NCBI RefSeq assembly: GCF_016907495.1
Contig: NZ_JAFBCC010000001.1
Span: 1,302,001 to 1,366,000 of the forward strand
Reading direction: 5' to 3'
Length of the DNA stretch: 64,000 nucleotides
Source: Arthrobacter tumbae
GTDB taxonomy: Bacteria > Actinomycetota > Actinomycetes > Actinomycetales > Micrococcaceae
Shown here in pieces: positions 17,063 to 54,300 of the stretch. The position numbers and the translations under genes were made by a program. The notes below the pieces were generated by a model. The model had not been told where the DNA came from. It saw only the letters and a program-made list of their open reading frames with translations, and did no database searches. Position 1 is the first letter of the stretch; each line of letters begins with the position of its first letter.

Positions 17063-17137
17063 GAGCAATCCGGACAAAATGGCGCACTATTTCGCTCCAT
17101 CCTTTCCGGATTGCTCAACCTAGTGTCCGGACTGCTC
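17063..17137. repeat. 75-nt intergenic element, copy A
   Basis: Left arm GAGCAATCCGGACA (17063). An inner copy of the opposite arm, TCCGGATTGCTC (17105-17116), pairs 12/12, and the right end TGTCCGGACTGCTC (17124-17137) pairs 13/14. It lies between convergent genes. Same length and layout as the elements at 29888, 34311 and 54151. Confidence 0.85.
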
Positions 17138-17149
17138 TTTTCCGGAAGG

Positions 17150-18106
17150 TCACCGGCTGCGGGACTGCTCATCACGCCAGCGATCAGGATGGTCTTCCAG
17201 TGCCACACGGTCCCAGCCACCGCCATCGGCGGCCGCCTGGTAGGTGGAGTGAAGGAATTGGCCCAACATACGGTCCGGATCTTCAGCGCTGCGTACAGCC
17301 TCGTACGGCAACAGGAACTGTCGGTACTCGGAGCTATAGAAAGCACCCGGCGGCATGACCGGATAGTCGGAGAAACCCTCTGGCTCAGGGTAGGCATAGG
17401 AGTAGAACGCGCCCTCGTCCCCGCCGCCGGGCCAGAATCCGCAACTGCTCAATTCCCGCGAGTAGCCCTCCAGCATCACCCAATCGCCGCAGTTCGGGGC
17501 ACCGCCCGGATGCGGCGGCGCCATACGCCCCGAAAACCTGGTGCAGGCCAGGTCCATCGCTCCCCAAAAGAAGTGGACCGGGCTGACCTTCCCGACAAAG
17601 TGCGACCGAAACTCGCCCAGGACCCGGCCGGCTTGGAGCAACTGACGCCAAAACAAGTGCGCCGCTTCGGCGTCGTAAGAGGCGTGTTCATAGTCTTCGG
17701 CGAACGGAATCGCCGGCTCAACCTCGTTTGGCCGCGATTGAATCTCCGCCTCAATCCCCAACTCAGCGAGGGCTTCCATGGTTTGGGCGTAGAAATCGGC
17801 GACCGGTTTTGGCTCCAGCGGCACAATTTTGCTCGAACCATTACTGCTGCGGATGACGAGCCGGTGATCGATGAAGTCGAACTCCATATCGAAGGTCCCG
17901 GCTCGGTACGGAATCCTTGATGTGGTCAGCCCCCTGGCGCTGACATAGAGCGTGACCTGCCACCAGTGGTTGAGCAGGGGTGCGTTCACCAGCCGGATCT
18001 TGCCCACAATCTGGGTCCACATGTGCAGGGTATCGCGGGTCGCTGTCCAATCCGCGACCCGCAATGAGGGCCATGTATCAGCGGTGGACATTTGTTTCGC
18101 GGTCAT
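17150..18106 (-). CDS. DUF5996 family protein
   Basis: 318 aa cytoplasmic protein of the family beginning with a WPSLRVADWTATRDTLHMW segment. Other landmarks are HWWQVTLYVSARGLTT, VHFFWGAMDLACTRFSGR and PPGAFYSSEYRQFLLPYEAV. No enzymatic function is known. AAGGAG precedes ATG 18106. It follows the flavodoxin-family gene by only 21 nt on the same strand, so it may be the last gene of the operon starting at 20111. Confidence 0.85.
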   Translation of the reverse strand: MTAKQMSTADTWPSLRVADWTATRDTLHMWTQIVGKIRLVNAPLLNHWWQVTLYVSARGLTTSRIPYRAGTFDMEFDFIDHRLVIRSSNGSSKIVPLEPKPVADFYAQTMEALAELGIEAEIQSRPNEVEPAIPFAEDYEHASYDAEAAHLFWRQLLQAGRVLGEFRSHFVGKVSPVHFFWGAMDLACTRFSGRMAPPHPGGAPNCGDWVMLEGYSRELSSCGFWPGGGDEGAFYSYAYPEPEGFSDYPVMPPGAFYSSEYRQFLLPYEAVRSAEDPDRMLGQFLHSTYQAAADGGGWDRVALEDHPDRWRDEQSRSR

Positions 18107-18127
18107 GTTTGCTCCTTACCGCTTCGG

Positions 18128-18889
18128 TTAGCGGTGCTCGGGGTTCTGCTGGTCCGGTGCACAGCCGGCGTCCCATTCGCTGCGCCGGTTCCCATACGCC
18201 GGAACGCCACCTGCAGCCCGCAACATCGCGGCGAGGTGCAGCAGGTTGTAGGTCATGAAAGTGGTGTTGCGGTTGGTGAAGTCGTTTTCCGGTCCGCCTG
18301 AACCGGGATCGAGGTAGGAGGGGCCCGGGCCGACTGCTCCGATCCAGCCGGCGTCGGCCTGCGGCGGGATGGTGTAGCCGAGGTGCTGCAGGCTGTAGAG
18401 CACATTCATTGCGCAGTGTTTGACTCCGTCCTCGTTGCCGGTAATCAGGGAGCCGCCCACGCGGCCGTAGTAGGCGTACTGGCCCTGCTCGTTGAGGATG
18501 CTGGAGCAGGCGTAAAGCCGTTCGATCACGCGTTTCATCACCGAACTGTTGTCACCCAGCCAGATGGGGCCAGCCAGAACCAGGATGTCCGCAGCCAGCA
18601 CGCGCTCGAAAATCACAGGCCAGGCATCAGTCTGCGAACCTTGCTCGGTCATATCAGGCCACACTCCGGTGGCGATGTCATGATCAACGGCCCGAATCTC
18701 GTCCACCTCGACCCCGTGGGCACGCATGATGCCGCTGCTACGGCGCACCAGTCCGTCAGTGTGGCTCTGTTCGGGAGAGCGCTTCAGGGTCGCGTTGATG
18801 AAGAGGGCCCGCAGTCCGGCAAAGGACGGCCGTTCGGTGTGATCTGCATCCGCCGTCGCGGCGGGCCCGGTACTGTCAGTCTCAGTCAT
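18128..18889 (-). CDS. Flavodoxin-family / NAD(P)H-dependent oxidoreductase
   Basis: 253 aa flavodoxin-like FMN protein. It has ALFINATLKRSPEQSHT (phosphate-binding loop region), LAGPIWLGDNSSVMKRVIER (isoalloxazine loop) and YYGRVGGSLITGNEDG, typical of WrbA/NADPH:quinone-type reductases. Start at ATG 18889 (MTETDSTG), which overlaps the stop of the DUF4260 gene (ATGACTGA). Third enzyme of a tightly coupled operon; it probably reduces a quinone or other small electron acceptor. Exact substrate unknown. Confidence 0.82.
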   Translation of the reverse strand: MTETDSTGPAATADADHTERPSFAGLRALFINATLKRSPEQSHTDGLVRRSSGIMRAHGVEVDEIRAVDHDIATGVWPDMTEQGSQTDAWPVIFERVLAADILVLAGPIWLGDNSSVMKRVIERLYACSSILNEQGQYAYYGRVGGSLITGNEDGVKHCAMNVLYSLQHLGYTIPPQADAGWIGAVGPGPSYLDPGSGGPENDFTNRNTTFMTYNLLHLAAMLRAAGGVPAYGNRRSEWDAGCAPDQQNPEHR

Positions 18890-19316
18890 TGATCGGGCTC
18901 TTTTCACGGCTAGTCATCGGAACAGGTGGTCGGTCGGCATCGATCGGCTTCCGACCGATCCGCCCGAGGTGCGTGTGCGTGAAGTCCTCCAGCTTGAGTC
19001 CGTAGCCGAGCGCCCGATCAACAGCGACGTGAAAAGCCCAGCATGCAGCGAGGAGCGCAAGCCAGGTCGCCTGACGACCGCCGAGCAGAAGGGCGAAATA
19101 AAGCGACAGCACGAGTGCCGGGCCAGTGTAGTTGTGCATCAGATTGTAGGTGACTGCACCAGCCCGGGAGCTGCGCAAATAGCCCAGGGCTGACAGGTCG
19201 AACAGGAGAAACGCGGCGAAAAGCAGCCACCAAGGCTGACTGTAAGCGATGACCGCGATCATGATCGACGACGCAATCGCCGCATTCTCTACCCGTTGGA
19301 TCGTCGTGGTTTTCAT
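18882..19316 (-). CDS. DUF4260 family membrane protein
   Basis: 144 aa, about four membrane helices. Family landmarks are YNLMHNYTGPALVLSLYFAL, AFHVAVDRALGYGLK and FTHTHLGRIG. Function unknown; several charged or His residues lie at the membrane edge. Its ATG overlaps the stop of the 70-aa membrane gene upstream (ATGA), and its own stop overlaps the flavodoxin start. Confidence 0.82.
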   Translation of the reverse strand: MKTTTIQRVENAAIASSIMIAVIAYSQPWWLLFAAFLLFDLSALGYLRSSRAGAVTYNLMHNYTGPALVLSLYFALLLGGRQATWLALLAACWAFHVAVDRALGYGLKLEDFTHTHLGRIGRKPIDADRPPVPMTSREKSPIND

Positions 19317-19525
19317 GCTGCCTTCTCCTGCTGCTTCCTACTGCATCGTCTCGTTATTTGCCACACGGCGCTAGCGACCGCCAGCCCGAGGCCTGTCGTA
19401 CCGAGCAAAACCGCAACGACGGCGAGATACTCCGTGGGAAGAACGGCGTCGAATTCGAGGGGGGCTCGCGTAAGCACGGCGACCGCCAGCAACACCAAGC
19501 CCAGCCCGGGCGGGATTTCCCCCAT
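19313..19525 (-). CDS. Small two-helix membrane protein
   Basis: 70 aa starting MGEIPPGLGLVLLAVAVLT at ATG 19525, four bases after the stop of the upstream export gene. Two hydrophobic helices (about 6-19 and 33-55) are followed by a basic tail, ITRRCSRKQQEK. The stop overlaps the DUF4260 start (ATGA). The exact junctions on both sides are the main evidence that this short frame is real. No family recognised. Confidence 0.65.
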   Translation of the reverse strand: MGEIPPGLGLVLLAVAVLTRAPLEFDAVLPTEYLAVVAVLLGTTGLGLAVASAVWQITRRCSRKQQEKAA

Positions 19526-19529
19526 GGGA

Positions 19530-20111
19530 TCAGGCCATTGTGACGACTTGGAGTGCAAGCAGGACCGAGACCGTGGCGATGGTGGTCCACAGCGCGATCG
19601 CAATGGCCTGCCACAGCAGAACCCATCCGCGCGGAGTGCCGCCGGCCACCAGGATCGCCGAAGTGAACTGCGTGGGGATGGCGAGCGGCCCGAGGAGGCT
19701 CGCGCCTGGTACGCCGAAGCGAACAAGCCACCTTTCGAAGCGCTTCCGACCCTTGGAGTCGGGCTTGGCTGGTGCCTGCTGTTCGGCAGCCGCGGCGCCG
19801 CCGCCAGCGGACCCTGCGACGGCAGTTGTCCCCATGGTCGCGCCGACCCTGTCGGAGCGGCGGTTCACGACGGCGGTGCGCGCCTGTGATGTAAGAAGCA
19901 CCACGAGGAGTACGCAGATGAAGTTTCCAGCAGCCGCGGCTACTGCCGCAACGACGGGGTTGACGCCACCGACGATGCCGATGATGGACGCGCCCTCGCC
20001 CTCGATGAAGGGGACGGCGCCGGCCAGCATCACGATCAGCGGCTGAATCAATTCGGGCACCTGGGCCACGAATTCTCGGAAGTTATTGACGAGTTCCTCG
20101 ATGGGATTCAT
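19530..20111 (-). CDS. Small multidrug export-type membrane protein
   Basis: 193 aa. It begins MNPIEELVNNFREFVAQVPE, then shows MLAGAVPFIEGEGASIIG, the conserved acidic membrane motif of the putative small multidrug export family (Sm_multidrug_ex). An Ala/Gly-rich cytoplasmic linker (about 95-118) separates the first helices from a C-terminal pair beginning FGVPGASLLGPLAIPTQF. AAGGAG precedes the ATG. First gene of the coupled operon export-70 aa-DUF4260-flavodoxin. The family name is historical; transport has not been shown. Confidence 0.75.
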   Translation of the reverse strand: MNPIEELVNNFREFVAQVPELIQPLIVMLAGAVPFIEGEGASIIGIVGGVNPVVAAVAAAAGNFICVLLVVLLTSQARTAVVNRRSDRVGATMGTTAVAGSAGGGAAAAEQQAPAKPDSKGRKRFERWLVRFGVPGASLLGPLAIPTQFTSAILVAGGTPRGWVLLWQAIAIALWTTIATVSVLLALQVVTMA

Positions 20112-20154
20112 CTAAGGCTCCTTGCTAATGTGGGTGACATTCGTCGCGCCACGG

Positions 20155-20176
20155 GGGTTTTTCTCAGTAGAAACCC
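20155..20176 (-). terminator. Short hairpin after merR gene
   Basis: GGGTTT and AAACCC are inverted around a 10-nt loop, six bases past the merR stop and about 45 bases before the next start. The stem is short, so it could instead be a regulator site for the operon at 20111. Confidence 0.35.
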
Positions 20177-20181
20177 TGTCC

Positions 20182-20973
20182 TTAGAACGGGGTCAAGTTG
20201 AGCAGCGACAAAGCTTCAGCGGAGGCTTCAGCATTGACGCCGCCGGCGCGTAACTGCTCTTGTGCGAGCATGCCCGCACGGGTGAGGACGTCGAGTTGAG
20301 CGGAGTTGTACAGTTCGACCACTGCCTCGATAAACGTTTCCTGCGTGACGTGTTCACTTTTCGACAGGTGGCGTGCCGGGTCCTGCAGCCATGGGTACTC
20401 GATCAGGTTCTTCACAAGAGTCGGCGCGAGCCGCTCCGCAAGTCGCTGCCGGGTCGCGTCGTCAGCCTCAGTCGGAAGTGCGTTGATTTCTTCCCCGACC
20501 ACGCCGGCCTCGGCGTCGACTTCCACCATGCGCCGTAGGTCCGCCATGGCGTCCTCGTCATACAACTGCGTATAGATGTGGATGATGGAGCTGTCTGAGT
20601 CGGAAAGGTGCGAAGCGATCGACGCGAATCCCGCAGGGGCGTCAGCGGGAGAGTTTTCGCGCAGGATCGCGGCGATGTCGGCCCGTGCCCGACGCAAACG
20701 CTCCATGCCGGCCGCGAGCTCAGCATCCAGCTCGCGCAACGCATCCGGTGTGCCCTCGCCGCCTGTGCTGACCTCCCCGATCCGGGAGAGCGGAACACCC
20801 AATTCCGCAAGTCTCCGAATCCTCAGCAGCCGCACGAGGTCCCTCACACCGTACTGCTTGTATCCGTTGTACCTGCGCTCAGGTTGGCCCATCAGCTTGA
20901 GTCGGTGATAGTGGCGGATTGTGTTCACGGTTGTGCCGGCCAAATCGGCCAATTCACGAGTACTCCACGCCAT
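20182..20973 (-). CDS. MerR-family transcriptional regulator
   Basis: 263 aa. The MerR winged helix is N-terminal (STRELADLAGTTVNTIRHYH, then RRYNGYKQYGVRDLVRLLRI), followed by a dimerisation helix (RELDAELAAGMERLRRARAD) and a ~150-residue effector domain. AAGGAG precedes ATG 20973. It lies upstream of, and on the same strand as, the export-DUF4260-flavodoxin operon (70-nt gap), and is its most likely regulator. The effector is unknown. Confidence 0.88.
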   Translation of the reverse strand: MAWSTRELADLAGTTVNTIRHYHRLKLMGQPERRYNGYKQYGVRDLVRLLRIRRLAELGVPLSRIGEVSTGGEGTPDALRELDAELAAGMERLRRARADIAAILRENSPADAPAGFASIASHLSDSDSSIIHIYTQLYDEDAMADLRRMVEVDAEAGVVGEEINALPTEADDATRQRLAERLAPTLVKNLIEYPWLQDPARHLSKSEHVTQETFIEAVVELYNSAQLDVLTRAGMLAQEQLRAGGVNAEASAEALSLLNLTPF

Positions 20974-21037
20974 GGGTTACTCCTTCGGTGACGGCGATCG
21001 CGCTCTTTGTCTGCCGGTGGCACGAGCGCTCCTGCGG

Positions 21038-21915
21038 CTAACTCGTTGAGATCGTCTGCTGTTGGGTCTGCCATTCACGGACGATGTGGACGACTTGGTC
21101 CAGGTGCGATTCGAGTAGGAAGTGTCCGCCGTCGAGGAGCTCGACCCGTGCGGCAGCGACATCGCGGCGGAACGCTTCGGCCCCGGCAGCCGAGAAGATC
21201 TCATCGTTTCGTCCCCACACGGCAAGGACCGGGATCTGGGATGCACCGAGCCAGTCCTGAATCGCGGGGTAGAGCCGCCTGTTCGTGACGTAATCGGCAA
21301 ACAGGTCTAGTTGAGCCCGGTCAGTCCCGGGTCGGTTCAGCAACGCAAGGTCATGCTCCCACGCATCAGGGTCGATAGTCGTTACGTCGGGGACGCCGTG
21401 CGTGTACTGCCATTCGACCGCCCCTCGTTCGAGCGCCGGCCGTAAAGCCGCCTCGTTGGACTCCGAACGATCAGCAGCGTAGGCCCAAATCGGATCCCAG
21501 AAGGCCTGGACAAATCCTTCCTCATACGCGTTTCCGTTCTGGGAGATCACACCTTCGAGGGCGCCCGGTTCTGCAAGTGCCAATCGCCATGCGATCGGGG
21601 CGCCGTAGTCCTGCACATACACGGTGTAGGTGGTGATGTTCAGGGTCCTGAGGAATCCGCGGGTGACCTCTGCCAGGGCATCGAAGGTATACGCGAAATC
21701 ATCGGCAGAGGGTGCGGATGAGCGTCCGAAGCCTATGTGATCCGGCGCGAGGACCCGGTACGTTTCCGCCAGCGCCGGAATGAGGTGCCGGAACATGTGC
21801 GAACTCGTGGGGTACCCATGGAGCAGCACGAGCACCGGGGCATGCTCTGGTCCGGATTCACGATAGAAGACGTCGAGGCCGTCGACGGTCACTGCGCGAT
21901 GGTGGACGGTAGGCA

Positions 21916-21916
<1 letters not shown>
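21038..21916 (-). CDS. Alpha/beta hydrolase, haloalkane dehalogenase/epoxide hydrolase-like
   Basis: 292 aa. Oxyanion motif HGYPTSSHMF near residue 33, and nucleophile Asp103 in YVQDYGAPIAW: an aspartate where esterases have serine, which points to the epoxide hydrolase/haloalkane dehalogenase branch. A cap domain follows, and the catalytic His is in DGGHFLLESH. Cytoplasmic. The ATG overlaps the stop of the 80-aa ORF upstream (TAATG). The true substrate cannot be told from sequence. Confidence 0.88.
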
Positions 21917-23093
<1,177 letters not shown>

Positions 23094-23199
23094 TCAGTTC
23101 GGCTTTTTCGGCGATCCGCGGTTCGCACCGCAAGATCAGGCTCGCATTGGAACCAGTCAGTACGCGTCGGTGAAAGCCACCTAGACCGGCATCCATAGC

Positions 23200-23227
23200 C
23201 ACCGTGTTGCAGCGCGGCAACACGGTG
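23200..23227 (-). terminator. Hairpin terminator after aldo/keto reductase gene
   Basis: An 11-bp perfect stem (CACCGTGTTGC/GCAACACGGTG) with a 6-nt loop begins about 21 bases past the reductase stop. No U-run, as is common in high-GC actinobacteria. Confidence 0.6.
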
Positions 23228-23248
23228 ACTACTGCTGGCCGTCATGTT

Positions 23249-24268
23249 TCACCGGCGCCGCAACGCTACGTCCAGCAGTGCTGGAGCGGCGTCATTCTTC
23301 TCGTGCGCAGCCAGGTCCGTGCCAGGCACGACGATCCCGTCGATCGCATCGAGCACATCGGTCGCCAGCACTATCTCAGCGGCCGCAAGCTGCGAGGCGA
23401 GGTGGTCGATCGTGCGCGGTCCGATCAGAGCACTGGTTACCCCTGGGTGGGCGGCGACGAACCCCAGCGCCAGCTGAATGAGAGTCAGATCTGATTCCTC
23501 AGCGAGGGCCGCGAGTTTCTCGACGGCGTCCATCCGCGCCTGGTTCCCGGGGTCAGCGAGGTCGAAACGCTGCGGCATGAACGCTGCACGGTTGGTGGTC
23601 ACTTCCCGGTCACGGCGCACCGCACCGGAGAGCCACCCCGAAGCCAGTGGACTCCACACCATCACGCCGAGTCCATACTCCTGAGCCACGGGCAGCACAT
23701 CACGCTCCACGCCGCGCTGCAGGATCGAATAGCTGGGCTGCTCGGTGACGAACCGACCTATCCCGGCCTTGGTAGCCGCCCACTGGGCCTGAACCAAGCG
23801 GTGGGCCGGATACGTAGAGGTTCCGAAGTGACGGATCTTCCCGGCCCGCTGCAGATCCGACAGCGCCGAGAGGGTCTCCTCGTCGCTCGTGGCCGGATCC
23901 CACCGGTGGATCTGGAATAGGTCGACATAGTCGACACCCAGCCTGCGCAGGCTGCCCTCAAGTGCCGCAGTGAGCCATCGCCGCGACGCTCCCTTCTGCC
24001 CGATCCTGTCGCTCATTGGCAGCCCGGCCTTGGTCGCCAGCACGACCTCGTCCCGGCGTCCGACGAGGGCTTTACCGAGCAGTTCCTCGGATTCCCCGCC
24101 GCTGTATACGTCGGCCGTGTCAACCATATTGATCCCGGCATCCAGTGCAGTGCCGACGAGCGCGTCGACCTCGGCCTGCGTTGTTCCGCCGATTCTTCCG
24201 AAGTTCATCGTGCCCAGGGCCAGGCGGCTCACCTGGATGCCTGTGTGTCCGAGGGTGCTGTACTGCAT
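23249..24268 (-). CDS. Aldo/keto reductase
   Basis: 339 aa NADPH-dependent (alpha/beta)8 reductase of the YajO/Tas type. It starts MQYSTLGHTGIQVSRLALGT. The catalytic Asp50 and Tyr55 are in VDTADVYSGG, Lys in LATKAG, and His in FQIHRWD. Start at ATG 24268, with AGGAG nine bases upstream, rather than 24316. Divergent from a TetR regulator; a palindrome with TCCGT/ACGGA arms sits between them. Substrate unknown. Confidence 0.92.
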   Translation of the reverse strand: MQYSTLGHTGIQVSRLALGTMNFGRIGGTTQAEVDALVGTALDAGINMVDTADVYSGGESEELLGKALVGRRDEVVLATKAGLPMSDRIGQKGASRRWLTAALEGSLRRLGVDYVDLFQIHRWDPATSDEETLSALSDLQRAGKIRHFGTSTYPAHRLVQAQWAATKAGIGRFVTEQPSYSILQRGVERDVLPVAQEYGLGVMVWSPLASGWLSGAVRRDREVTTNRAAFMPQRFDLADPGNQARMDAVEKLAALAEESDLTLIQLALGFVAAHPGVTSALIGPRTIDHLASQLAAAEIVLATDVLDAIDGIVVPGTDLAAHEKNDAAPALLDVALRRR

Positions 24269-24333
24269 AGCGTTCTCCTGTCGTGATGTTGTGTGGCGCA
24301 GCGCCCGATCTGGCAAGATTGAACCGGAGCAGC

Positions 24334-24354
24334 GCTCCGTTAAAGATACGGAGC
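24334..24354. promoter_or_regulatory. Candidate TetR operator
   Basis: Arms GCTCCGT (24334) and ACGGAGC (24348-24354) around a 7-nt spacer, between the divergent aldo/keto reductase and TetR genes. A third TCCGT half-site follows at 24359. Confidence 0.6.
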
Positions 24355-24385
24355 GTTGTTCCGTTTAGCAAGGAGGAGCCCCGCC

Positions 24386-24976
24386 ATGCCAAGCGCCACT
24401 GAACCCGGCCGCTCAAAGACCGCGCCCCCAGCCCGTACGCGGCGGTCTGACGCCCGCCGCAACGAGCAGGTCCTACTCGGGGCCGCGGCGCGGATATTCG
24501 CGGAGTCGGGCATTGATGCCCCGGTACGGCTCATCGCGGCAGAGGCCGGCGTGGGAATGGGGACCATCTACCGCCATTTCCCTTCGCGTTCCGAGCTGAT
24601 CGCCGCCGTCTACCGTCATCAGGTCGACGCGTGCGTCGACCTCGGGGAGACGCTGCTCAAGGACGGCTCACAGCCGTTCGCGGCACTGGCCGAGTGGTTC
24701 GACGCCTTCGTTGACTTCCTTGCAACCAAACACGGGCTCGCAACCGTCCGCACCCAGGACGAGTCGACCGGCAGTCTGCATGACTACTTCCTCGACCGGC
24801 TCGTGCCGATCTGCGACCGCCTCCTCGATGCCGCGCGCGCAAATGGCGAAATCAGCGCCAAAGTTACCGGGTATGAGTTGATGCGCGGCGTCGGCAATCT
24901 CTGCCTTTTAGCAGGAGATGATGGTCGCTACGACCCACGCAAGCTCACCCATTTGCTCCTGGCCGGCACCCGCTGA
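24386..24976 (+). CDS. TetR-family transcriptional regulator
   Basis: 196 aa. HTH visible as ESGIDAPVRLIAAEAGVGMG then TIYRHFPSRSELIAAVYRHQ, followed by the helical ligand domain. Start at ATG 24386 (MPSATEPG), which follows AAGGAGGAG; the open frame to 24356 crosses the operator. It is divergent from the aldo/keto reductase and probably represses it and itself. Confidence 0.9.
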   Translation: MPSATEPGRSKTAPPARTRRSDARRNEQVLLGAAARIFAESGIDAPVRLIAAEAGVGMGTIYRHFPSRSELIAAVYRHQVDACVDLGETLLKDGSQPFAALAEWFDAFVDFLATKHGLATVRTQDESTGSLHDYFLDRLVPICDRLLDAARANGEISAKVTGYELMRGVGNLCLLAGDDGRYDPRKLTHLLLAGTR

Positions 24977-25086
24977 CAAAAACCATTCGCCCGCGGTGAG
25001 GCTACTGCTTGGCAGGCCTCGTTCGCGTCGGTGACAATTACCTAGTAAACCTAGTATTTCGACGACAGACCCAGGCGGGAGCGAAT

Positions 25087-27840: not shown

Positions 27841-27872
27841 CCCAGCCCGACGGCGAGAGACGCCGCGCCGCG

Positions 27873-28990: not shown

Positions 28991-29059
28991 GCCACGACGT
29001 TCGACGGCTGTCGCGGACAGTGCGGGCGCAGCCGTACCCTCTCAAGTAGAGTCACAATC

Positions 29060-29830: not shown

Positions 29831-29887
29831 AATAACGACGGGGCCCGGTTACGAAGCGTTCGCGGTGCGGCTTCGTAGATCCACATA

Positions 29888-29962
29888 GAGCAATCCGGAC
29901 AATTCGGTGCGAAATTTCACTCCATCTTGCCCGGATTGCTCTATGTCCTGTCCGGATTGCTC
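29888..29962. repeat. 75-nt intergenic element, copy B
   Basis: Left arm GAGCAATCCGGACA pairs perfectly with the right end TGTCCGGATTGCTC (29949-29962). The alternative partner CCGGATTGCTCTATG (29931-29945) pairs 15/15 with CATAGAGCAATCCGG (29884-29898). The two pairings exclude each other. It lies between convergent genes. Confidence 0.88.
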
Positions 29963-29964
29963 CG

Positions 29965-31254: not shown

Positions 31255-31469
31255 ATATTCCTCGTCCTATCCACGTGAGACCTTCACACTGCGAATCTTC
31301 AGGTGCATGTCGACTACGCATCACCTTCCAGCGCGTGTGTAGACCTCGCAGCGCCAGGGCGGATAACTCTCGCCGCTGTAACGCCAGTAGATAGTGTGTT
31401 GCTGGAACACGGTCAAGACGGCGCGCCGCCGGATGACCTGCACCGGCCCTGCGAGAGCACATGGCACCC

Positions 31470-31532: not shown

Positions 31533-31549
31533 CGGGTACTGCTTGCGAC

Positions 31550-34117: not shown

Positions 34118-34135
34118 CTTTGAATCCTTTCAACG

Positions 34136-34310: not shown

Positions 34311-34385
34311 GAGCAAACTAGACCAAGGTGAGCAGCATTTCCCTCACCGTTCTCCGGCTTGGTCCCTATCGTGTCCGGGTTGCTC
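34311..34385. repeat. 75-nt intergenic element, copy C
   Basis: Starts GAGCAAACTAGACC and ends GTCCGGGTTGCTC. An inner hairpin GGTGAG/CTCACC (around 34327-34348) and the following CTCC-GC-TGGTCCC block match copy D at 54151. The left arm has drifted, so the end-to-end pairing is weaker. It is the only copy fused to tandem repeats. Confidence 0.75.
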
Positions 34386-34553
34386 GACGCCGCGTCCGGG
34401 TTGCTCGGCGCGGTGTCCGGGTTGCTCGACGCAACGTCCGGGTTGCTCGGCGCAGCTGCAGGTTTGCCGGAAAGCTCGGACCACAGCCGGACGCAGTGTC
34501 CGGGTTGCTCGGCGCGGTGTCCGGGTTGCTCGACGCCGCGTCCGGGTTGCTCG
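34373..34553. repeat. 21-nt tandem array (seven GTCCGGGTTGCTCG units)
   Basis: Units start at 34373, 34394, 34415, 34436, then 34498, 34519 and 34540: exactly 21 nt apart within each block. A 41-nt segment with GCAGGTTTGCCGGAAA separates the blocks, and a near copy (ACAGGTTCGCCGGAAA) follows the second block, so a ~104-nt higher-order unit was duplicated. The unit equals the right end of the 75-nt element. Confidence 0.88.
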
Positions 34554-47399: not shown

Positions 47400-48133
47400 G
47401 CGAGTCGCCGCGCGTCCCACTGTTTCCGGGATCGGTCGGCATGAGCGACCTGCGGGTCTACGAGTGGGCGACCGCTGACGGGCACCATGGGGGGACGCCG
47501 CACCTGCACACGGTGTCGAACGAGGGGTACGTGGTGATCGGCGGATCAGGTGAGGTGCACACGCTCTCCTCCGAGGGCTACGCGCGAGACCCGCTGAGTG
47601 CCGGCTCGGTGCTGTGGTTCAGCCCGGGCACGGTGCACCGGCTCATCAACACCGGGGACCTGCACATCCTGACGATCATGCAGAACTCGGGGCTTCCCGA
47701 GGCGGGGGACGCAGTGCTGACGTTTCCGCTGGAGATTGTTTCCGACGCCGGCAGGTACCGGTCAGCGGTCACGTTGCCTGAGGGCAGCGAGGCGGAGCGC
47801 GGCGAGGCCGCCCGTCGTCGTCGTGATTTGGCAATCGAGGGCTACGCGGACCTGCTGGCTGCGCTGGAGAGCGGCGACCGCGGTCCGCTGGAGGCGTTCT
47901 ACGTCGCCGCGGCCGCGCTGGTGCAGCCTCGTGTGGAGGAGTGGACGAAACTGTGGACGGACACGGTGCTTGCGGATGTCGAGACGACCCGCGCGCAGCT
48001 GACCTCCCTCGCGGAAGGCGACGCTTCGCACCTGGGCGGCGCCGCCGTCGTACGTGCCGTGCCGCGGCCTGAGCCGCGCGCCTTTGGGATGTGCGGGCGG
48101 CTGGGGATCTGGGACGCCGACCGGCGCTCCTAA
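47396..48133 (+). CDS. Cupin-domain protein at the end of the rhamnose operon
   Basis: 245 aa. Start at GTG 47396, overlapping the upstream TGA (GTGA). The cupin barrel is at about 25-110: GHHGGTPHLHTVSNEGYVVI with His ligands, then WFSPGTVHRLINTGDLHIL. The C-terminal ~100 residues are helical (LALEGYADLL-like, RVEEWTKLWTDTVLADVETT). Bicupin partners or sugar-isomerase roles are possible; no specific function can be assigned. Last gene before a strong palindrome. Confidence 0.8.
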   Translation: MSESPRVPLFPGSVGMSDLRVYEWATADGHHGGTPHLHTVSNEGYVVIGGSGEVHTLSSEGYARDPLSAGSVLWFSPGTVHRLINTGDLHILTIMQNSGLPEAGDAVLTFPLEIVSDAGRYRSAVTLPEGSEAERGEAARRRRDLAIEGYADLLAALESGDRGPLEAFYVAAAALVQPRVEEWTKLWTDTVLADVETTRAQLTSLAEGDASHLGGAAVVRAVPRPEPRAFGMCGRLGIWDADRRS

Positions 48134-48184
48134 CCTCTGCCGACTCCTCTGCCGACTCACCTCCGCAAAAGTGCCGGTAACCGG

Positions 48185-48214
48185 CAGGATCGTGGGGACG
48201 TCCCCACGATCCTG
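48185..48214. terminator. Perfect 30-bp palindrome, bidirectional terminator
   Basis: Two perfectly complementary 15-nt halves, the first being CAGGATCGTGGGGAC, meet at 48199/48200. It lies 52 bases past the cupin stop and 50 before the stop of the convergent PAP2 gene. GCAAAAGTGCC to its left recalls the arms of hairpin family 2. Confidence 0.75.
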
Positions 48215-48263
48215 ACAATCACCGGCGCGTTTGCGTGCGGCAGGTTCGCGTTACCGACCGGGG

Positions 48264-49334
48264 TTAACCCAGGCGCGGGGCTGCTGCCTGGGCTGTCGCG
48301 GGATCAGGCAGTTGTGACCGAGCGGCCCTGGTTCGACCGACGGCCAGTGCCGCCAACCACACCGAGAGTCCTCCGATGACCAAACCGGCAGGAACGTCGA
48401 CGATATAGTGCCATCCGAAGTAGACGGTTGCTACCGACGTCAAGGCAACAAAGGCCCATAGAGCCCAGCGAAGCAGCTTGGGCAGGCGCGCCAGGTGCGC
48501 AACCAGTGCCGCCGTAAAGACCACGGAGACGTGGAGCGAGGCGAAGGCGGCGATCCCGTGCACGTCTTGCGTGGCATGGGGGTCGGCCAGCACTTCGACG
48601 CGGTTACGCCATAGACCCTCCTGCAAACCGGCGACGGCGGTGTCGGGCAAGTCCGCGAACGTTCCGGGATGCACATAGATCGGCCCCAGCGAGGGAAGCG
48701 TGTAGTAGCTAACCGCGCCGAGGAGCCAGTTGAAGCTGAGCGCGGTGACATACCAGGCCCCCAGGGAAAGGTTGTCGAACCAGATCAGCGCTGCGGCAAG
48801 CGAAAGCGGAACGAATAGCATGTAGAACATGTACACCGCAGACAGAACTGTGGCGCTGATGCCCGTTCCGAGAAGCTCGTGAAGTATGTCTCCGGGATAC
48901 TGACCGCCCACCAGCAGACGGTCGGAAGCAAGTAACAGCATGTCCTCACGGCGCTCCTGGAGGAAGGGCAGGAAGCTCTTGAAGTTCCGGTAGGCGACGT
49001 ACGAAAGATAGAAAACCGTCAGCCCCGCCACCGTGACTGCCATACGGGGTCCGCTCCAGCGTTCGCGAAGAACACGAACCACCATTCCGAGGACATCCCT
49101 GGGGACTGGGCGTTTGAGGGCTACCCGCGGCACCACATCGGCCGCCAAGAAGATGAGCGCAATCAGGGGCAGACGAACATAGCTGGGACCCAGGAAGCCA
49201 TCAGGGTCACGGATGGGAAGATCCGCGACGATTGCGGTCACCACCATCAGGATTCCGCATGAAACGGTGACGATGAGCGGGACGCCGAACAAGCGACGCC
49301 ACAACAAATGTTCATGTCTTGTTTCAATAGTCAT
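48264..49334 (-). CDS. PAP2-superfamily membrane phosphatase
   Basis: 356 aa with about seven membrane helices. C-terminal phosphatase-like signature: FASLHVSVVFTAALVAHLAR, then FGWHYIVDVPAGLVIGGLSV, the two histidine motifs of PAP2/inositol-phosphorylceramide-synthase-like enzymes. Probably acts on a lipid phosphate or transfers a head group at the outer membrane face. Start uncertain: ATG 49334 (MTIETRHEH) or GTG 49352. Confidence 0.82.
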   Translation of the reverse strand: MTIETRHEHLLWRRLFGVPLIVTVSCGILMVVTAIVADLPIRDPDGFLGPSYVRLPLIALIFLAADVVPRVALKRPVPRDVLGMVVRVLRERWSGPRMAVTVAGLTVFYLSYVAYRNFKSFLPFLQERREDMLLLASDRLLVGGQYPGDILHELLGTGISATVLSAVYMFYMLFVPLSLAAALIWFDNLSLGAWYVTALSFNWLLGAVSYYTLPSLGPIYVHPGTFADLPDTAVAGLQEGLWRNRVEVLADPHATQDVHGIAAFASLHVSVVFTAALVAHLARLPKLLRWALWAFVALTSVATVYFGWHYIVDVPAGLVIGGLSVWLAALAVGRTRAARSQLPDPATAQAAAPRLG

Positions 49335-49422
49335 TACCGGTAAGTATTCCACCTGCGCTAGAAATCCTCCCCAAGGCGGCGCGCCCCTTCAGTAGCGGGC
49401 AAACGGACCTGCCTCGATACCC

Positions 49423-50367
49423 TTGTTTCATGACGCCGTGCGAGCAGCTGTGACCCACCAATCGGGCGCGGGCATCGGTGCTGTTTTTGTCCTCATTGCG
49501 GCGGTGCTGTGGGGAACAACCGGCACCGTTGCCAGCTTTGCGCCCGGCGTCGGCCCCCTCGCCATCGGCGCGGCGGCAATGGGAATCGGCGGCCTCCTTC
49601 AGGCAGCCCTCGCAGGACCGGCGCTGGTCCACGCCCGCCACGAATTACGACGGCGGTGGATTCCTATCGCTCTCGGCGGCCTGGCCGTCGCGATCTACCC
49701 GCTTGCCTTCTACAGCTCCATGCGGTTGGCCGGTGTTGCTGTGGGTACCGTCATTTCGATCGGCTCGGCGCCCATCGCGTCAGCGGTTATCGAGCGCGTC
49801 GTTGACGGGCACCGGCTGACCCGGCGCTGGGTGGTGGGTGCCGGCGTCGGGCTGGTGGGCGTAGTGCTGCTCTCGTTTGTGGAGCCGGCGCAGGAGGCGG
49901 GAGCAGGTGACACCACGGCCGGGGTCCTGCTGGGTTTGCTCGCCGGCGTGACGTACGCGATGTACTCCTGGGCGGCCCACCGGACCATGCGGCGCGGCGT
50001 GCGCTCCCGGGTTGCGATGGGCGCGATCTTCGGCGTGGGAGGCGTGCTGCTGATGCCGGTGCTCTTCCTCACCGGCGCGCCGTTGCTTGCCTCGTGGAAC
50101 AACTTCGCTGTCGGTGCCTACATGGCGCTGGTGCCGATGTTCCTCGGCTACGTCCTCTTCGGTCTGGGCCTCGCCAGGGTCACGGCAAGCACGGCAACCA
50201 CACTGTCCCTGGCGGAACCGGTGGTCGCGGCGATGCTCGCCGTCGTCATCGTGGGTGAAAGGCTGCCGGCGGCAGGGTGGATCGGCGTCGGGCTTGTGAT
50301 TGCGAGCCTGGCAGTGCTCACGGTGCCGGTCCGACGCAATGTCCGCACAGCGGTTGGCGTGCCCTAG
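49423..50367 (+). CDS. EamA/DMT-superfamily transporter
   Basis: 314 aa, ten predicted helices in two EamA repeats (VFVLIAAVLWGTTGTVASFA, and GVLLGLLAGVTYAMYSWAAH). ASTATTLSLAEPVVAAMLAV near the C-terminus is typical. Exporter of amino acids or other metabolites; substrate unknown. TTG 49423 gives the longest frame; GTG at 49438 or 49450 is also possible, with no good ribosome site for any. Its stop overlaps the convergent lipoprotein gene by four bases. Confidence 0.87.
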   Translation: MFHDAVRAAVTHQSGAGIGAVFVLIAAVLWGTTGTVASFAPGVGPLAIGAAAMGIGGLLQAALAGPALVHARHELRRRWIPIALGGLAVAIYPLAFYSSMRLAGVAVGTVISIGSAPIASAVIERVVDGHRLTRRWVVGAGVGLVGVVLLSFVEPAQEAGAGDTTAGVLLGLLAGVTYAMYSWAAHRTMRRGVRSRVAMGAIFGVGGVLLMPVLFLTGAPLLASWNNFAVGAYMALVPMFLGYVLFGLGLARVTASTATTLSLAEPVVAAMLAVVIVGERLPAAGWIGVGLVIASLAVLTVPVRRNVRTAVGVP

Positions 50368-50855
50368 GAGGTTGCTGCCTCCGGCGCCGTGACCGCGAAA
50401 ATGTACTCGACGCCGACGGCCGGTTCACCACTGAACGTGATGAAGTAGCCGGGCTCCTCCACGGAAACGGTGAAAAAGGTGGGATCGCCGCAGGCAAAAC
50501 CGGTCATGCGCTCGCTGCGAGCCTGCGATGTGTAGGAGAAGGTGAGCCCCTCTGTGCCCCGGCACTGGGCGTGGACGAGATACTCGCCCACGGGAAGCTC
50601 GGTGTCCGGCCAACCGATGGTTCCCATGGTGGTGGAGTCACCATCACCTTCCTGGATGACGTCCTCCGGATCAAGACCGAGATCCAACGGCGCCATGGTC
50701 GGCTCGGGTGCGCTCGCCACGACCTCGGAAGTGTCCTTCGACTCCTCGCCCATCGCGGCGGATACAGCCGAGCACGAACTCAGTATGAGCGCTGCAACGG
50801 CCCAAGCGGCCGCTGCAGCCAGACGGATAGGTGTATGTCCCCCGGATTTCCCCAC
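50364..50855 (-). CDS. Putative secreted lipoprotein
   Basis: 163 aa. Signal peptide with lipobox AALILSSC, followed by an acidic, disordered linker and a ~90-residue beta domain (TELPVGEYLVHAQCRGTEGL; two Cys, in AQCRG and GFACGD, could form a disulphide). No family recognised. Convergent with the EamA transporter and divergent from the YkvA gene. Confidence 0.78.
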   Translation of the reverse strand: MGKSGGHTPIRLAAAAAWAVAALILSSCSAVSAAMGEESKDTSEVVASAPEPTMAPLDLGLDPEDVIQEGDGDSTTMGTIGWPDTELPVGEYLVHAQCRGTEGLTFSYTSQARSERMTGFACGDPTFFTVSVEEPGYFITFSGEPAVGVEYIFAVTAPEAATS

Positions 50856-50916
50856 CCGCTAACCCTAACGGGCGGCCGTGCTCTCGAACAGACACGGGGC
50901 ACATAGGGTTGGCAGC

Positions 50917-51333
50917 ATGTCGTGGGAACCTGTAGTCGCTATCCTGGCGGGGCTCCTTGTTGTGTACGTGGTGGCGCTCGTGCTCCTTTATCTCTACGCG
51001 CGCAGGAATCCCGAAACCGTGAGCATGCGCAGCGCCCTGCGCCTGCTTCCGGATCTGCTCCGGCTCCTCCGATCCCTGTTGAGAGACCGAGAGGTCCCGC
51101 GATCGGTCCGAGTGCTCATCGTGGTGCTGCTGGCGTACCTGGTCCTGCCGATCGACCTCGTACCGGATTTCATCCCGGTGCTGGGGTACGCCGACGACCT
51201 GATCATCGTTGCCGTCGTCCTCCGCGCAGTCATCCGGCGTACCGGACCGGAGCTGCTGGCCCGCCTCTGGACGGGCGACGACGACGGCCTGCACGTGGTC
51301 CTCCGGCTTGCCGGATACGCCGAACGTCCCTGA
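50917..51333 (+). CDS. YkvA-family (DUF1232) membrane protein
   Basis: 138 aa. N-terminal membrane helix (EPVVAILAGLLVVYVVALVL), a basic helical region, then the DUF1232 signature LLAYLVLPIDLVPDFIPVLG followed by YADDLIIVAVVLRAVI. Start at ATG 50917 (MSWEP) because the upstream part of the frame is not family-like. Function unknown. Confidence 0.87.
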   Translation: MSWEPVVAILAGLLVVYVVALVLLYLYARRNPETVSMRSALRLLPDLLRLLRSLLRDREVPRSVRVLIVVLLAYLVLPIDLVPDFIPVLGYADDLIIVAVVLRAVIRRTGPELLARLWTGDDDGLHVVLRLAGYAERP

Positions 51334-51337
51334 GTAC

Positions 51338-51405
51338 GAACTTTCGTGCAGATCCAGTGGCTTCCGGCCCCCCCCCCCGAAATCGCCGGACGTGCGCAAA
51401 AGTTC
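51338..51405. repeat. Hairpin repeat family 2, copy 4, with C11 run in the loop
   Basis: Arms GAACTTTCGTGCA (51338) and TGCGCAAAAGTTC (ending 51405), imperfect, between convergent genes. Eleven consecutive C bases (51368-51378) lie in the loop. Serves as a shared terminator position. Confidence 0.7.
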
Positions 51406-51417
51406 CCAGGAGGTGGG

Positions 51418-52248
51418 TCACATCCGCCCGAACTTCGCGCGCACCAACGCGAAAATGCCGTAGCAGATAAGGCCCACCGCAATGGAGATGAGCATCGCAT
51501 CACCGAACGGGTGGTCCGTCAGCGCCTTCAGGCTGCCGTCGAGCCCCGTGGAGCGTGCAGCGTCATGGGTAACCACAGCGGCAATGAACAGGATCCCTAC
51601 GAGAATGAGGGCAATTCCTTTCGCGACGTGCCCGATGACTCCGAGCACCTCGATGAGGGCCCCGCGGTGCGTGTCCTCGAAGTGCCGGAGCTCGGGCCGG
51701 AATTTGCGGAGGAGCCCCTTGAAGACAAAGTGGACGCCAATTCCGAGGACGGTCCCGCCAACGGCAAGGATCACAAAAATGCCGAAGCCGGAGCCGATCA
51801 TCGCCGCGGTGAAATCGCGGGTTGATTCGCTGGAGTCAACTTCCCCGCCGAAGGCGAACCGGGCAAAGGTGAAGGCCATACTGCCGTAGATGATGCTCAG
51901 CGATCCGGAGGATATTGTCTTGGAGACCTGTTCCCCGGTGGGCAGGTGGCGGGCGCGCAGGGTCGCTTCGCTGAGCTGCCAGGCAGCGAGTCCGAGGCAC
52001 CCGATCGCGCAGGCCCACATGATCCACGGGCCGGACGTTCCACCAGCCAGCTGTTCCAGGGCGCCGGTCGGCTCAGCCTCACCGCTTCCTCCGAACGCGA
52101 TCTGCAGCGCAATGATGCCGATGAGAATATGAACGACGGCGAGAACGGCGAATCCGAAGCGCGCGACGGCGTCGAGCACTGCATGGTCCGACGCATCCTC
52201 CGCGACATCCGCGGCCTCCCGTGCCCGGGAGCTTCCATCCGTTGACAT
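51418..52248 (-). CDS. DUF1206 family membrane protein
   Basis: 276 aa, six predicted helices arranged as three repeats of the DUF1206 two-helix unit. The start of each unit is visible: FGFAVLAVVHILIGIIALQI, then SGSLSIIYGSMAFTFARFAF, then IGHVAKGIALILVGILFIAA. Function unknown; widespread in actinobacteria. ATG 52248 (MSTDGSSRARE) is preceded by GAGCGGTGA, a weak ribosome site. Confidence 0.87.
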   Translation of the reverse strand: MSTDGSSRAREAADVAEDASDHAVLDAVARFGFAVLAVVHILIGIIALQIAFGGSGEAEPTGALEQLAGGTSGPWIMWACAIGCLGLAAWQLSEATLRARHLPTGEQVSKTISSGSLSIIYGSMAFTFARFAFGGEVDSSESTRDFTAAMIGSGFGIFVILAVGGTVLGIGVHFVFKGLLRKFRPELRHFEDTHRGALIEVLGVIGHVAKGIALILVGILFIAAVVTHDAARSTGLDGSLKALTDHPFGDAMLISIAVGLICYGIFALVRAKFGRM

Positions 52249-52328
52249 TCACCGCTCCTGCATTTACCTGGGATTTCAGGGTACAACCGCAGGTGCCTTT
52301 CGATGGGCGCAAGCCCGCAGTGCAGAGG

Positions 52329-52973
52329 TCAGCGCCGCCAGAACAGGTGATGGGTCACGCCGCCGGCGCTGGGAACAACCTCGAGATGGAAGCGATCGAG
52401 CAACTCCTCGGGCGATTCCCACAGGCGCGCCCCGGATCCGAGTTCAACCGGAGAGACAGCTACGTGCAGCGTGTCCACGAGATCCGCGTCGAGAAACTCC
52501 CGGATGGTGGTCGCGCCGCCGCCCAGCCGGACATCCTTGCCATTGGCGGCCTTCCGCGCGTCAGCCAGCACCGTTGCTGGATCAGCGCCGGTGAAATGGA
52601 ACGTGGTATCGGACAGGGTGAAGGAGGGCCGCTCGTGGTGGGTCATTACAAACACTGGAGTATGGAAAGGCGGTTCGTTGCCCCACCAGCCCTGCCAGTC
52701 CTCGTTCTGCCACGGGCCACGGTGTGGACTGAACTTGTTTCTGCCCATGATTTCCGCCCCGATGTTGTTGCTGAAATCCCGGGTGAAGTAGTCGTCGAGG
52801 CCGCGGGTCCCTCCGGGGTCAGTTCGGTTCGGCCAGCTTGCCGTTGCTCCTGCCCAGGCGAACATGGCGCCGGGGTCTGCGTGACCGAACGGTCTTTCCA
52901 GGCTCTGGTTCTCACCGGCTCCGAAACCGTCACTGGAAACACCGAAATTCTGGACCCTCAGTAGCTGGTTCAC
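52329..52973 (-). CDS. Dihydrofolate-reductase-fold protein
   Basis: 214 aa RibD-C/DHFR-like reductase: [16 protein letters not shown] at the start, [37 protein letters not shown] and [19 protein letters not shown]. Start at GTG 52973, which overlaps the stop of the Cds1-like gene (GTGA) and has GAGGAG upstream. Different subfamily from the protein at 4730 (larger, with an [12 protein letters not shown] insertion). Substrate unknown. Confidence 0.86.
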
Positions 52974-54067
52974 CTGATACTCCTCATCGTTGTCGCCGGC
53001 CACTCCCCCGTATCGAAGAACTGCTCCAGCAGTGCGAGCGCGGGCCCGGGATCCAGACCACGCTCGGCCAGCCAGGAGTCGTCGTTATAGGAACACGCAT
53101 AACGCTCACCAGAGTCGCAGAGGAGGGAGACGATACTCCCCTGCCGGCCGGCCGCCTTCAGTTCCGCGACCAACTGCCATACTCCCCACAGGTTGGTTCC
53201 GGTGGACGGACCGGCTGACATCCCCGTCCAGGTACGGAGGTGCCGGGAAGCGGCAACCGAAGCGGCATCGGGGACCTGGATCATCGCGTCAATGACTGAG
53301 GGAACGAAACTCGGCTCAGGCCGGGGCCGGCCGATCCCCTCGATCCGCGACGGCTTCCCGACGGCGGCGGCACCTTCCGCCCAGGTGGGATAGAACGCCG
53401 AGTTTTCCGGGTCCACCACGGCAAGCCGTGTGGGGTAGCGGTTGTAGCGGAGGTACCTGCCGATGGTCGCGCTGGTTCCGCCGGTTCCTGCGCCGACAAC
53501 CACCCACTCGGGAACGGGAAACCTCTCGTGTTCCATTTGCCGGAAGATCGATTCGGCGATGTTGTTGTTGCCGCGCCAGTCGGTGGCTCGTTCGGCGTAC
53601 GTGAACTGGTCCATGTAGTGGCCGCCGGTCTCCGCCGCAATGCGCTCGGCGGCGTCATACACTTCCGACGCCCCGTCAACGAAGGAGCACGTCCCGCCGT
53701 ACTGCTCTATCAGCGCGATCTTCTCGGGACTGGTGGATCGGGTCATCACCGCAACGAACGGCAGTCCGAGCAGTTGCGCGAAGTACGCCTCGGAGACGGC
53801 CGTCGATCCGCTGGAGGCCTCAACGATGGTGGCGCCCTCCCGGATCCAGCCGTTGACGAGCCCGAACAGGAACAGCGACCGGGCCAGCCGGTGCTTCAGG
53901 CTTCCCGTCCGGTGCGTCGACTCGTCCTTGAGGTAGACGTCGATGCCCCAGCTCTCCGGCAGCGGCAGCGCGAGCAGGTGGGTGTCGGCGGACCGGTTGC
54001 CCTCGGCCTCGATGCGCCGGATGGCCTCATCCGACCAGGCGCGGTCAGCCACAGCGGAAATCGTCAT
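52970..54067 (-). CDS. PLP-dependent cysteine synthase-family enzyme, Cds1-like
   Basis: 365 aa fold type II PLP enzyme. PLP Lys58 in [15 protein letters not shown]; phosphate loop [35 protein letters not shown] near residue 85. Closest in character to the mycobacterial L-cysteine desulfhydrase Cds1 (cysteine to pyruvate, sulphide and ammonia), rather than biosynthetic CysK. Coupled to the DHFR-fold gene downstream. Confidence 0.84.
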
Positions 54068-54107
54068 ATCTGCACCTTACGGAGTCACGCCGACAAAAGG
54101 GCCACCG

Positions 54108-54300
54108 ACGACGACGGCGCCCCCGTGGGTGCTCCGGCGCCCCCTTGCGCGAGCAACCTGGACATCGGTGAGGGAAATACTGCTCACCGATCTCCAGCCT
54201 GGTCCCACTCGTGTCCAGGTTGCTCACCTGCACTCCCCGAAACGACGGTGACGGCTACCCGCCGCATGGCAGGGAACGACGACGGCGCCCCGGTGGGTGC
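54108..54300. repeat. 25-nt direct repeat flanking the 75-nt element
   Basis: ACGACGACGGCGCCCC followed by one variable base and GTGGGTGC occurs at 54108-54132 and 54276-54300 (24 of 25 identical). Copy D of the 75-nt element lies between. The second copy forms the left stem and loop of the hairpin at 54271-54316. Confidence 0.75.
54151..54225. repeat. 75-nt intergenic element, copy D
   Basis: GAGCAACCTGGACA (54151-54164) and TGTCCAGGTTGCTC (54212-54225) pair perfectly, 14 bp. Inner hairpin GGTGAG/CTCACC as in copy C, then CTCCAGCCTGGTCCC. Compensating base changes compared with copies A and B (T:A pair to C:G) keep the end stem intact. Confidence 0.88.

What the first reader, a model, noticed from the sequence alone, without database searches (positions are those of the whole stretch)
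17063..54225. A family of intergenic elements exactly 75 nt long
Four copies (17063-17137, 29888-29962, 34311-34385, 54151-54225) share length, order of motifs and position at gene 3' ends. Each starts GAGCAA..C..GAC and ends TGTCC-GG-TGCTC or close to it. Copies B and D have perfect 14-bp end stems of different sequence, so stem pairs co-vary: evidence for selection on structure rather than sequence. Two subfamilies exist: A/B with an inner second partner for the left arm (mutually exclusive pairings) and C/D with an inner GGTGAG/CTCACC hairpin. No protein or known element explains them; a REP/BIME-like or non-autonomous mobile element, or a transcript-end structure, are the main options.
Basis: partly seen in the sequence, partly recalled or inferred. 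Interest (0 to 1): 0.85.

Follow-up and report, generated by a model that had tools for sequence, protein, structure and literature searches.

The report
Palindromic repeats with matching nuclease genes
The four repeats belong to a scattered family of palindromic DNA arrays that also sits on both sides of one particular nuclease-like gene in this soil bacterium, and related genes in other bacteria are often flanked by their own different palindromes, which suggests an unrecognised kind of repeat-and-enzyme partnership.

Summary
The repeats are real, but 75 nt is not their natural unit. Each is a 54-bp dyad (13-bp unit GAGCAAnCyrGAC, inner dyad, inverted unit) plus outward units at a 21-bp period; 75 = 54 + 21, and copy C has seven outward units. 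The genome (an Arthrobacter relative) holds about 15 strong cores. Two of them flank a single gene of about 320 aa. Its predicted structure joins an AbiEi-like winged-helix/nucleotidyltransferase-fold part to a Vsr/homing-endonuclease-like domain. All 7 genomes (of 57, this one included) with a close homologue carry many elements; 5 of the other 50 have a few matches. Distant homologues are mostly flanked by palindromes of their own, unrelated sequence: 60 of 80 genes pass a flank-matching test, against 0 of 45 control genes. Below 60% protein identity elements are almost never shared (56 of 6182 ordered pairs). The closest analogue is REP/RAYT, but the RAYT transposase domain was not found in any of 27 same-genus genomes searched. 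Best reading: a new REP-like system in which a dedicated nuclease recognises and maintains or spreads its own palindromes. The association is strong; binding, cutting and copying are inferred.

The parts
17063..17116 (.). Copy A: 54-bp dyad core (units 17063-17075 + and 17104-17116 -)
17125..17137 (-). Copy A: one outward unit, 21 bp beyond the core's right unit
29888..29941 (.). Copy B: 54-bp dyad core
29950..29962 (-). Copy B: one outward unit at +21
34311..34364 (.). Copy C: 54-bp dyad core (right unit degenerate)
34373..34552 (-). Copy C: tandem array. Intact units at 34373, 34394, 34415, 34436 (in 21-bp register with the core) and at 34498, 34519, 34540 (21 bp apart from each other, 1 bp out of the core's register), with a degenerate stretch between
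54151..54204 (.). Copy D: 54-bp dyad core (right unit degenerate)
54213..54225 (-). Copy D: one outward unit at +21
48164..48235 (.). Copy of a second, unrelated palindrome family (72-bp dyad) whose other copies flank another homologue of the nuclease-like gene in the same genome (G000:C1:1963662-1964447)

Best explanation
The elements are the dispersed recognition arrays of a dedicated DNA-binding nuclease. One gene for this family lies in the genome (G000:C1:2680204-2681175, outside the window) and is itself bracketed by two of the arrays. Shown: the modular dyad plus 21-bp-phased units, the bracketing, the co-occurrence, the same arrangement with different palindromes for most paralogues, and the lack of sharing of elements between diverged proteins. 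Inferred: the AbiEi-like head binds the 13-bp unit (one protomer per unit, all on one face of the helix); the Vsr/I-Bth0305I-like domain nicks or cuts at the dyad; break repair then copies, converts or maintains the array at other intergenic sites; when the gene is lost the family decays. This works like REPIN/RAYT, with a non-homologous enzyme.
Against: No activity, binding or mobility was measured. 20 of 80 homologues (and 29 of 77 named loci) fail the flank test. Four same-genus genomes with elements (G002, G005, G019, G023) lack a close homologue, so elements can outlive it, and the co-occurrence is confounded by phylogeny. Several elements are at orthologous sites in different species, so turnover is slow or they are kept for another reason. 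Copy numbers (about 15) are far below typical REP numbers. The model that found relatives was built from this genome, so its scores favour close kin. Foldseek's own E-values for the nuclease domain were weak (Vsr 0.12, I-Bth0305I 0.47; probabilities 0.96 and 0.92). Autoregulation alone (AbiEi-like repressor with operators) would explain the upstream copy.
Confidence: 0.66

Rival explanations
1. Operator arrays: the protein is an AbiEi-type autoregulator (nuclease domain idle or for another purpose) and the dispersed arrays are its regulon or nucleoid-binding sites; the dyads are bound, not cut or copied.
For: AbiEi and Rv2827c repress from inverted repeats in their own promoter (PMC7319586, passages); helical phasing of units; each of the seven family-1 genes has an upstream array.
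Against: An equivalent array lies downstream of the gene too, and 8 of 22 sampled dispersed copies lie between convergent genes, where there is no promoter to act on; candidate nuclease residues are invariant in 36 of 36.
Confidence: 0.2
2. Transcript-end structures: bidirectional hairpins that end or protect transcripts; the arrays beside the nuclease-like gene simply insulate it.
For: Frequent 3'-end position; at site A a different hairpin stands in G018 and G004 where G000, G022, G023, G025 have this element; strong predicted hairpins, and TTTT after copy A.
Against: None of 24 terminator-like hits overlaps the elements; hairpins do not need 21-bp phasing, an outward orientation rule or gene-specific sequence.
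Confidence: 0.08
3. Ordinary REP/BIME elements mobilised by a RAYT (Y1 tyrosine transposase).
For: Dispersed intergenic palindromes and a gene bracketed by two copies, as in REPtrons (PMC2817692 and PMC3733652, passages).
Against: No Y1_Tnp (PF01797) match in any of 27 same-genus genomes, G000 included; 1 of 43 genomes overall; the same search finds it in 5 of 14 control genomes including E. coli. G029, which has elements, was not among the 43. No GTAG/CGTC tag in the consensus.
Confidence: 0.02
4. Coincidence: passive tandem/palindromic repeats of MITE origin, with the nuclease-like gene next to two of them by chance or as hitch-hiker.
For: Copies A and B resemble each other, as copies of an element would (77% identity over 81 nt).
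Against: 60 of 80 versus 0 of 45; four genes with four separate families in one genome.
Confidence: 0.04

Closest known systems
REP/REPIN elements with RAYT transposases (REPtrons, TIRtrons)
   Same: Dispersed intergenic palindromes; a dedicated gene bracketed by two copies; several gene-specific families can coexist in a genome; genomes with the gene hold more elements (passages of PMC2817692, PMC3733652, PMC8049555).
   Different: No Y1 tyrosine transposase in 27 same-genus genomes searched; the enzyme is an AbiEi-like/Vsr-like protein; 54-bp dyads with 21-bp-phased outward units in family 1 and a 72-bp dyad in another family; about 3 to 17 places per family in this genome instead of over 100.
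AbiE type IV toxin-antitoxin systems (AbiEi antitoxin)
   Same: Winged helix plus nucleotidyltransferase-like domain (6y8q, 1zel) and inverted repeats upstream.
   Different: An added Vsr-like domain, repeats on both sides and dispersed, and a single gene between the arrays at the family-1 locus.
Vsr-like (EDxHD) homing endonucleases such as I-Bth0305I, and Vsr
   Different: The gene lies between genes rather than inside an intron or target gene, and carries repeats on both flanks (homing background recalled).
CGTC-tagged REPs (no dedicated transposase known, per PMC3733652 passages)
   Same: REP-like palindromes without a RAYT.
   Different: Here a candidate dedicated enzyme is identified; no CGTC tag.

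Membership tests
REP/RAYT (REPtron) | Dispersed intergenic palindromic repeats | tested here: met
   17 places at E<=1 in G000, 15 of them at 2e-7 or better
REP/RAYT (REPtron) | Gene bracketed by two copies of the repeat | tested here: met
   60 of 80 homologues pass the flank test
REP/RAYT (REPtron) | The bracketed gene is a Y1 (HUH) tyrosine transposase, PF01797 | tested here: not met
   0 of 27 same-genus genomes, 1 of 43 in all; the bracketed protein folds as AbiEi + Vsr-like
REP/RAYT (REPtron) | GTAG or CGTC tag at one end | tested here: not met
   consensus of 40 cores runs GAGC...GCTC
REP/RAYT (REPtron) | High copy number (usually over 100 per genome, abstract of PMC2817692) | tested here: not met
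   17 places
REP/RAYT (REPtron) | Repeats are copied by the enzyme | not testable with these tools
   needs experiment
AbiE type IV toxin-antitoxin | AbiEi fold | tested here: met
AbiE type IV toxin-antitoxin | Adjacent AbiEii toxin gene | tested here: not met
   at the G000 family-1 locus the arrays enclose one gene; the neighbours given to Pfam are a hexapeptide-repeat protein and a formyl-transferase/ACT protein. Not tested for the other 79 homologues
AbiE type IV toxin-antitoxin | Binding to inverted repeats | not testable with these tools
   inferred from PMC7319586
Vsr-like homing endonuclease | Vsr/EDxHD catalytic domain | tested here: met
Vsr-like homing endonuclease | Gene inserted in the site it cuts in the empty allele | tested here: inconclusive
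   the locus is empty in G002 and G004, but whether that junction is a target is unknown
Intrinsic terminator | Hairpin followed by a T-run | tested here: not met
   none of 24 terminator-like hits in 16900-35000 and 47900-54500 overlaps A-D or 48164-48235
Described RNA family (Rfam 15) | Match at gathering score | tested here: not met
   0 matches in the window

The most novel reading that the evidence does not exclude
AbiEi-like/Vsr-like fusion nucleases form a large, unrecognised class of REP-like systems in Micrococcales: each gene recognises, cuts and copies its own palindromic array by break repair, changes specificity quickly (hardly any sharing of elements below about 60% protein identity), and several mutually independent systems coexist per genome (four in this one), reshaping intergenic DNA as different families replace each other at the same gene ends.
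Probability: 0.5. Interest if true: 0.92.

Novelty: categorically new. Interest (0 to 1): 0.86.

Why it matters
REP-like repeats are common, but the only enzymes tied to them that I know of or found are HUH tyrosine transposases, and some REP families have no known partner. A second, non-homologous enzyme class with its own repeat families would explain many intergenic palindromes in a large group of actinobacteria, give hundreds of natural protein-site pairs from which the recognition code of AbiEi-type winged helices could be read, and suggest new site-specific nucleases. It also gives a testable role to proteins now named only 'AbiEi family antitoxin domain-containing' or 'hypothetical'.

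Tried and rejected
Led nowhere or against the reading: Rfam scan of the window, 0 matches. NCBIfam, nothing for two of the proteins. A sequence-profile search of PDB found no relative (3 chance-level hits, E 0.12-0.6); only fold comparison linked the domains. PADLOC models hit only as AbiEi (E 6e-3 to 1.5e-11). The first pair count used a structure string I had mis-typed by two columns (40.8% paired); one search is the right one. The glutaminase next to B is not a conserved neighbour in the genus, so it was useless for empty sites. A comparison of domains between families 1 and 2 showed no single domain that carries the difference (mean identity within family 1 and between: wHTH 64 and 50, middle 65 and 53, nuclease 72 and 64). 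A G-U versus A-C strand test for RNA-level selection was not done because element orientation is arbitrary. Clustering of cores on the chromosome (8 of 14 in 400 kb, P=0.0026; 6 of 14 in 200 kb, P=0.0048; 4 of 14 in 100 kb, P=0.053) is post hoc and left as an observation. The palindrome-only test was weaker than the matching test: 32 of 80 upstream and 35 of 80 downstream flanks at z>=4 against 3 of 61 window segments.

Literature: 10 searches in open-licence PMC papers only; in the listings I saw (8 of 608 papers) none ties palindromic repeats to AbiEi/DUF559/Vsr-like genes. Subscription papers and preprints were not searched. PMC7319586, PMC8049555, PMC3733652, PMC2817692: listings and passages only. 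PMC12306157 (RepRanger): listing and one passage, a table row for an Arthrobacter genome whose column heads I did not see; the words RAYT, transposase and endonuclease do not occur in its text. So repeats of some kind in this genus may already be counted in print.

Rows dropped and caps: one search scored 150 of 1443 first-look candidates and one search used stricter filters with 101 scored per genome and a cut list, so match counts are lower bounds. Alignment A2 used 36 of the 120 listed (298 found) homologues, picked by me for spread. One search covered 49 loci that I picked. Alignment A4 used 40 of the 54 distinct places found there; the 14 dropped are those not 54 nt long or weak, so A4 cannot show that 54 is fixed. 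Of the 54 places, the five from genomes without a close homologue (G002, G005 twice, G019, G023) are 51-53 nt (one reads 52 or 54 by strand), while 41 of 49 from genomes with it are 54; small and not independent. One search left out 3 of 80 loci for short flanks, and the 80 are the best of 563. Labels PEP mutase, RG lyase, DUF5996 are from Pfam; 'gamma-carbonic-anhydrase-like' and 'PurU' are by eye, Pfam giving hexapeptide repeat and formyl transferase + ACT. REP/RAYT and homing background beyond the cited passages is recalled.
Full report
WHAT IS THERE. Each reads as a 54-bp dyad followed by one more unit. The dyad is a 13-bp unit GAGCAAnCyrGAC, 3 nt, an inner dyad close to GGTGAGCGAAATTTCGCTCACC, 3 nt, and the unit inverted. 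Further units stand outward of the core at a 21-bp period. Copy C is the clearest: it has seven intact outward units, six of them beyond the 75-mer, up to 34552; the last three are 1 bp out of the core's register. So 75 = 54 + 21, a quantised length. Around 40 cores from this and related genomes, 80 outward units were found; 69 are at exact multiples of 21 bp and only 3 units point the other way or lie inside. The spacers carry little information (0.01 to 0.49 bits per position) and the unit 1.2 to 1.9 bits except at positions 7 and 9 (a score cut-off chose the units). Twenty-one bp is two helical turns, so the arrangement looks like protein sites on one face of the DNA.

DYAD SELECTION. On 13 cores of the own genome the dyad holds 77.6% paired cells (slid controls 34-44%) and 24 cells changed on both sides against 13.7 in shuffles, 2 of 500 shuffles reaching it. 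On 40 cores it is 81.1% (slid 35-44%), 85 against 42.2 +- 6.3, 0 of 500 reaching it. The shuffles ignore relatedness. A covariance model finds 17 places in the 3.7-Mb genome at E<=1, 13 of which built the model.

THE PARTNER GENE. Of 57 genomes, own included, 12 have a match at E<=0.01. In five genomes two cores lie 1.15 to 1.33 kb apart, and between them is one homologous gene of about 320 aa. In two more genomes the homologous gene also has elements on both sides. The protein search gives close homologues (60% identity or more) in 7 of 57 genomes; all 7 carry 14 to 31 matches (both strands counted). Of the other 50, 5 have 1 to 9 (G002, G005, G019, G023 and, marginally, G040 of another family). 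This is confounded by phylogeny.

A GENERAL RULE. More distant homologues in this and other genomes are often bracketed too, but by palindromes of other sequence. I tested all 80 hits: best local match between 700 bp upstream and 700 bp downstream, against 40 dinucleotide shuffles. 60 of 80 reach z>=5 (median 11.2); 0 of 45 window genes do (median 0.1, maximum 4.6). In named genomes (among the passing ones Arthrobacter, Pseudarthrobacter, Paenarthrobacter, Cryobacterium, Frigoribacterium, Agreia, Cellulomonas, Plantibacter) 48 of 77 testable loci do, against 14 of 462 mismatched pairs; at least five of these loci are places already in the first set. Taking upstream of gene i against downstream of gene j, z>=5 occurs in 79 of 138 ordered pairs with protein identity of 60% or more, and in 5 of 328 (45-60%), 4 of 562 (35-45%), 29 of 3784 (25-35%) and 18 of 1508 (below 25% or no hit). 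Many pairs in the top band are orthologues at one place, so sharing there is partly common descent; the telling part is the near absence of sharing below. The window's own genome has four such genes with four unrelated families: diagonal z 9.1, 9.0, 20.6, 26.8, all off-diagonals 1.2 or less, although two of the proteins are 56% and two 50% identical. Two of these families are visibly dispersed: a 72-bp palindrome with 8 cores by eye, one of them in the window at 48164-48235, and a second with 5 full and 1 partial. The fourth shows 3 places with the pattern used.

TURNOVER. Elements occupy orthologous sites in several species (site 2951478 in G002, G008, G010, G018, G029; site 1221249 in G018, G022; sites A and C in G022; site A in G023; site 1043799 in G025; site C also in G018). 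Yet they also come and go. The bracketed gene is absent with no array in G002 and G004, and G005 keeps a lone unit there. Site A has this element in G000, G022, G023, G025, a different hairpin in G018 and G004, and nothing in G002, whose alignment to G000 ends within 9 bases of the element's left edge. Site C is empty in G002 and holds another palindrome in G025. G002 is the closest relative by PurU (97%), has no close homologue of the nuclease-like gene and only 3 matches; its copy at site 2951478 has lost three bases of the dyad. This is what one expects if the gene maintains the family, but it is a small sample.

MECHANISM AND COMPARISON. Most likely the protein binds the units, cuts or nicks at the dyad, and repair copies or converts arrays. 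Binding, cutting and copying are inferred. In organisation this is a REPtron: REPs also bracket a dedicated gene and are dispersed (PMC2817692, PMC3733652, passages), and E. coli genomes with the RAYT hold more REPINs (PMC8049555, passages). It is not a member: no Y1 transposase in 27 of 27 same-genus genomes searched, in a search that finds one in 5 of 14 controls (8 same-genus genomes of the 57, G029 among them, were not in that set). I call it categorically new because the enzyme is of another fold and the partnership is not in the papers my 10 searches listed; the organisation itself is convergent with a known kind.

WEAK POINTS. 20 of 80 and 29 of 77 loci fail; I did not work out why (some hits are partial). 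The model was built from this genome. No expression or biochemical data exist here. The regulatory rival (operators only) stands at about one in five.

Noticed in passing
window 31467-31535 and about 15856-15922: Another palindrome family (CAGATAAGGCGGGTTCAGC dyad); at site A it stands in G018 and a similar hairpin in G004 where other species have the family-1 element. No partner gene was found for it in the loci at hand.
   Followed up: partly
window 17072-29005 and 29843-31469: Compared with G002 these two segments are extra in this genome; the first begins at element A and the second contains element B.
   Followed up: partly
upstream of the nuclease-like genes (for example L065, L069, L105): A TYRTCCACA motif lies within 300 nt upstream of 40 of 80 homologues (29 of the 40 at 48-145 nt before the match) and of 25 of 80 named loci; the pattern read backwards 0 of 80 in both sets. 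It resembles a DnaA box (recalled).
   Followed up: partly
G000:C1:979795-1356204: 8 of 14 family-1 places fall within 400 kb (P=0.0026 by simulation, post hoc).
   Followed up: partly
window 60990-61002: A lone family-1 unit with one mismatch, without an inverted partner at 41 bp.
   Followed up: no
window 35118-35222: 15-bp tandem repeats, apparently inside an ORF next to array C.
   Followed up: no
window 38251-38420 and 45828-45997: A 170-nt inverted pair at 74%, probably two paralogous genes in opposite orientation.
   Followed up: no
L384 (G025), site C: At the place of copy C this relative has a different palindrome around GCATCGAGTGGGCGC, suggesting that different families use the same intergenic sites.
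   Followed up: no
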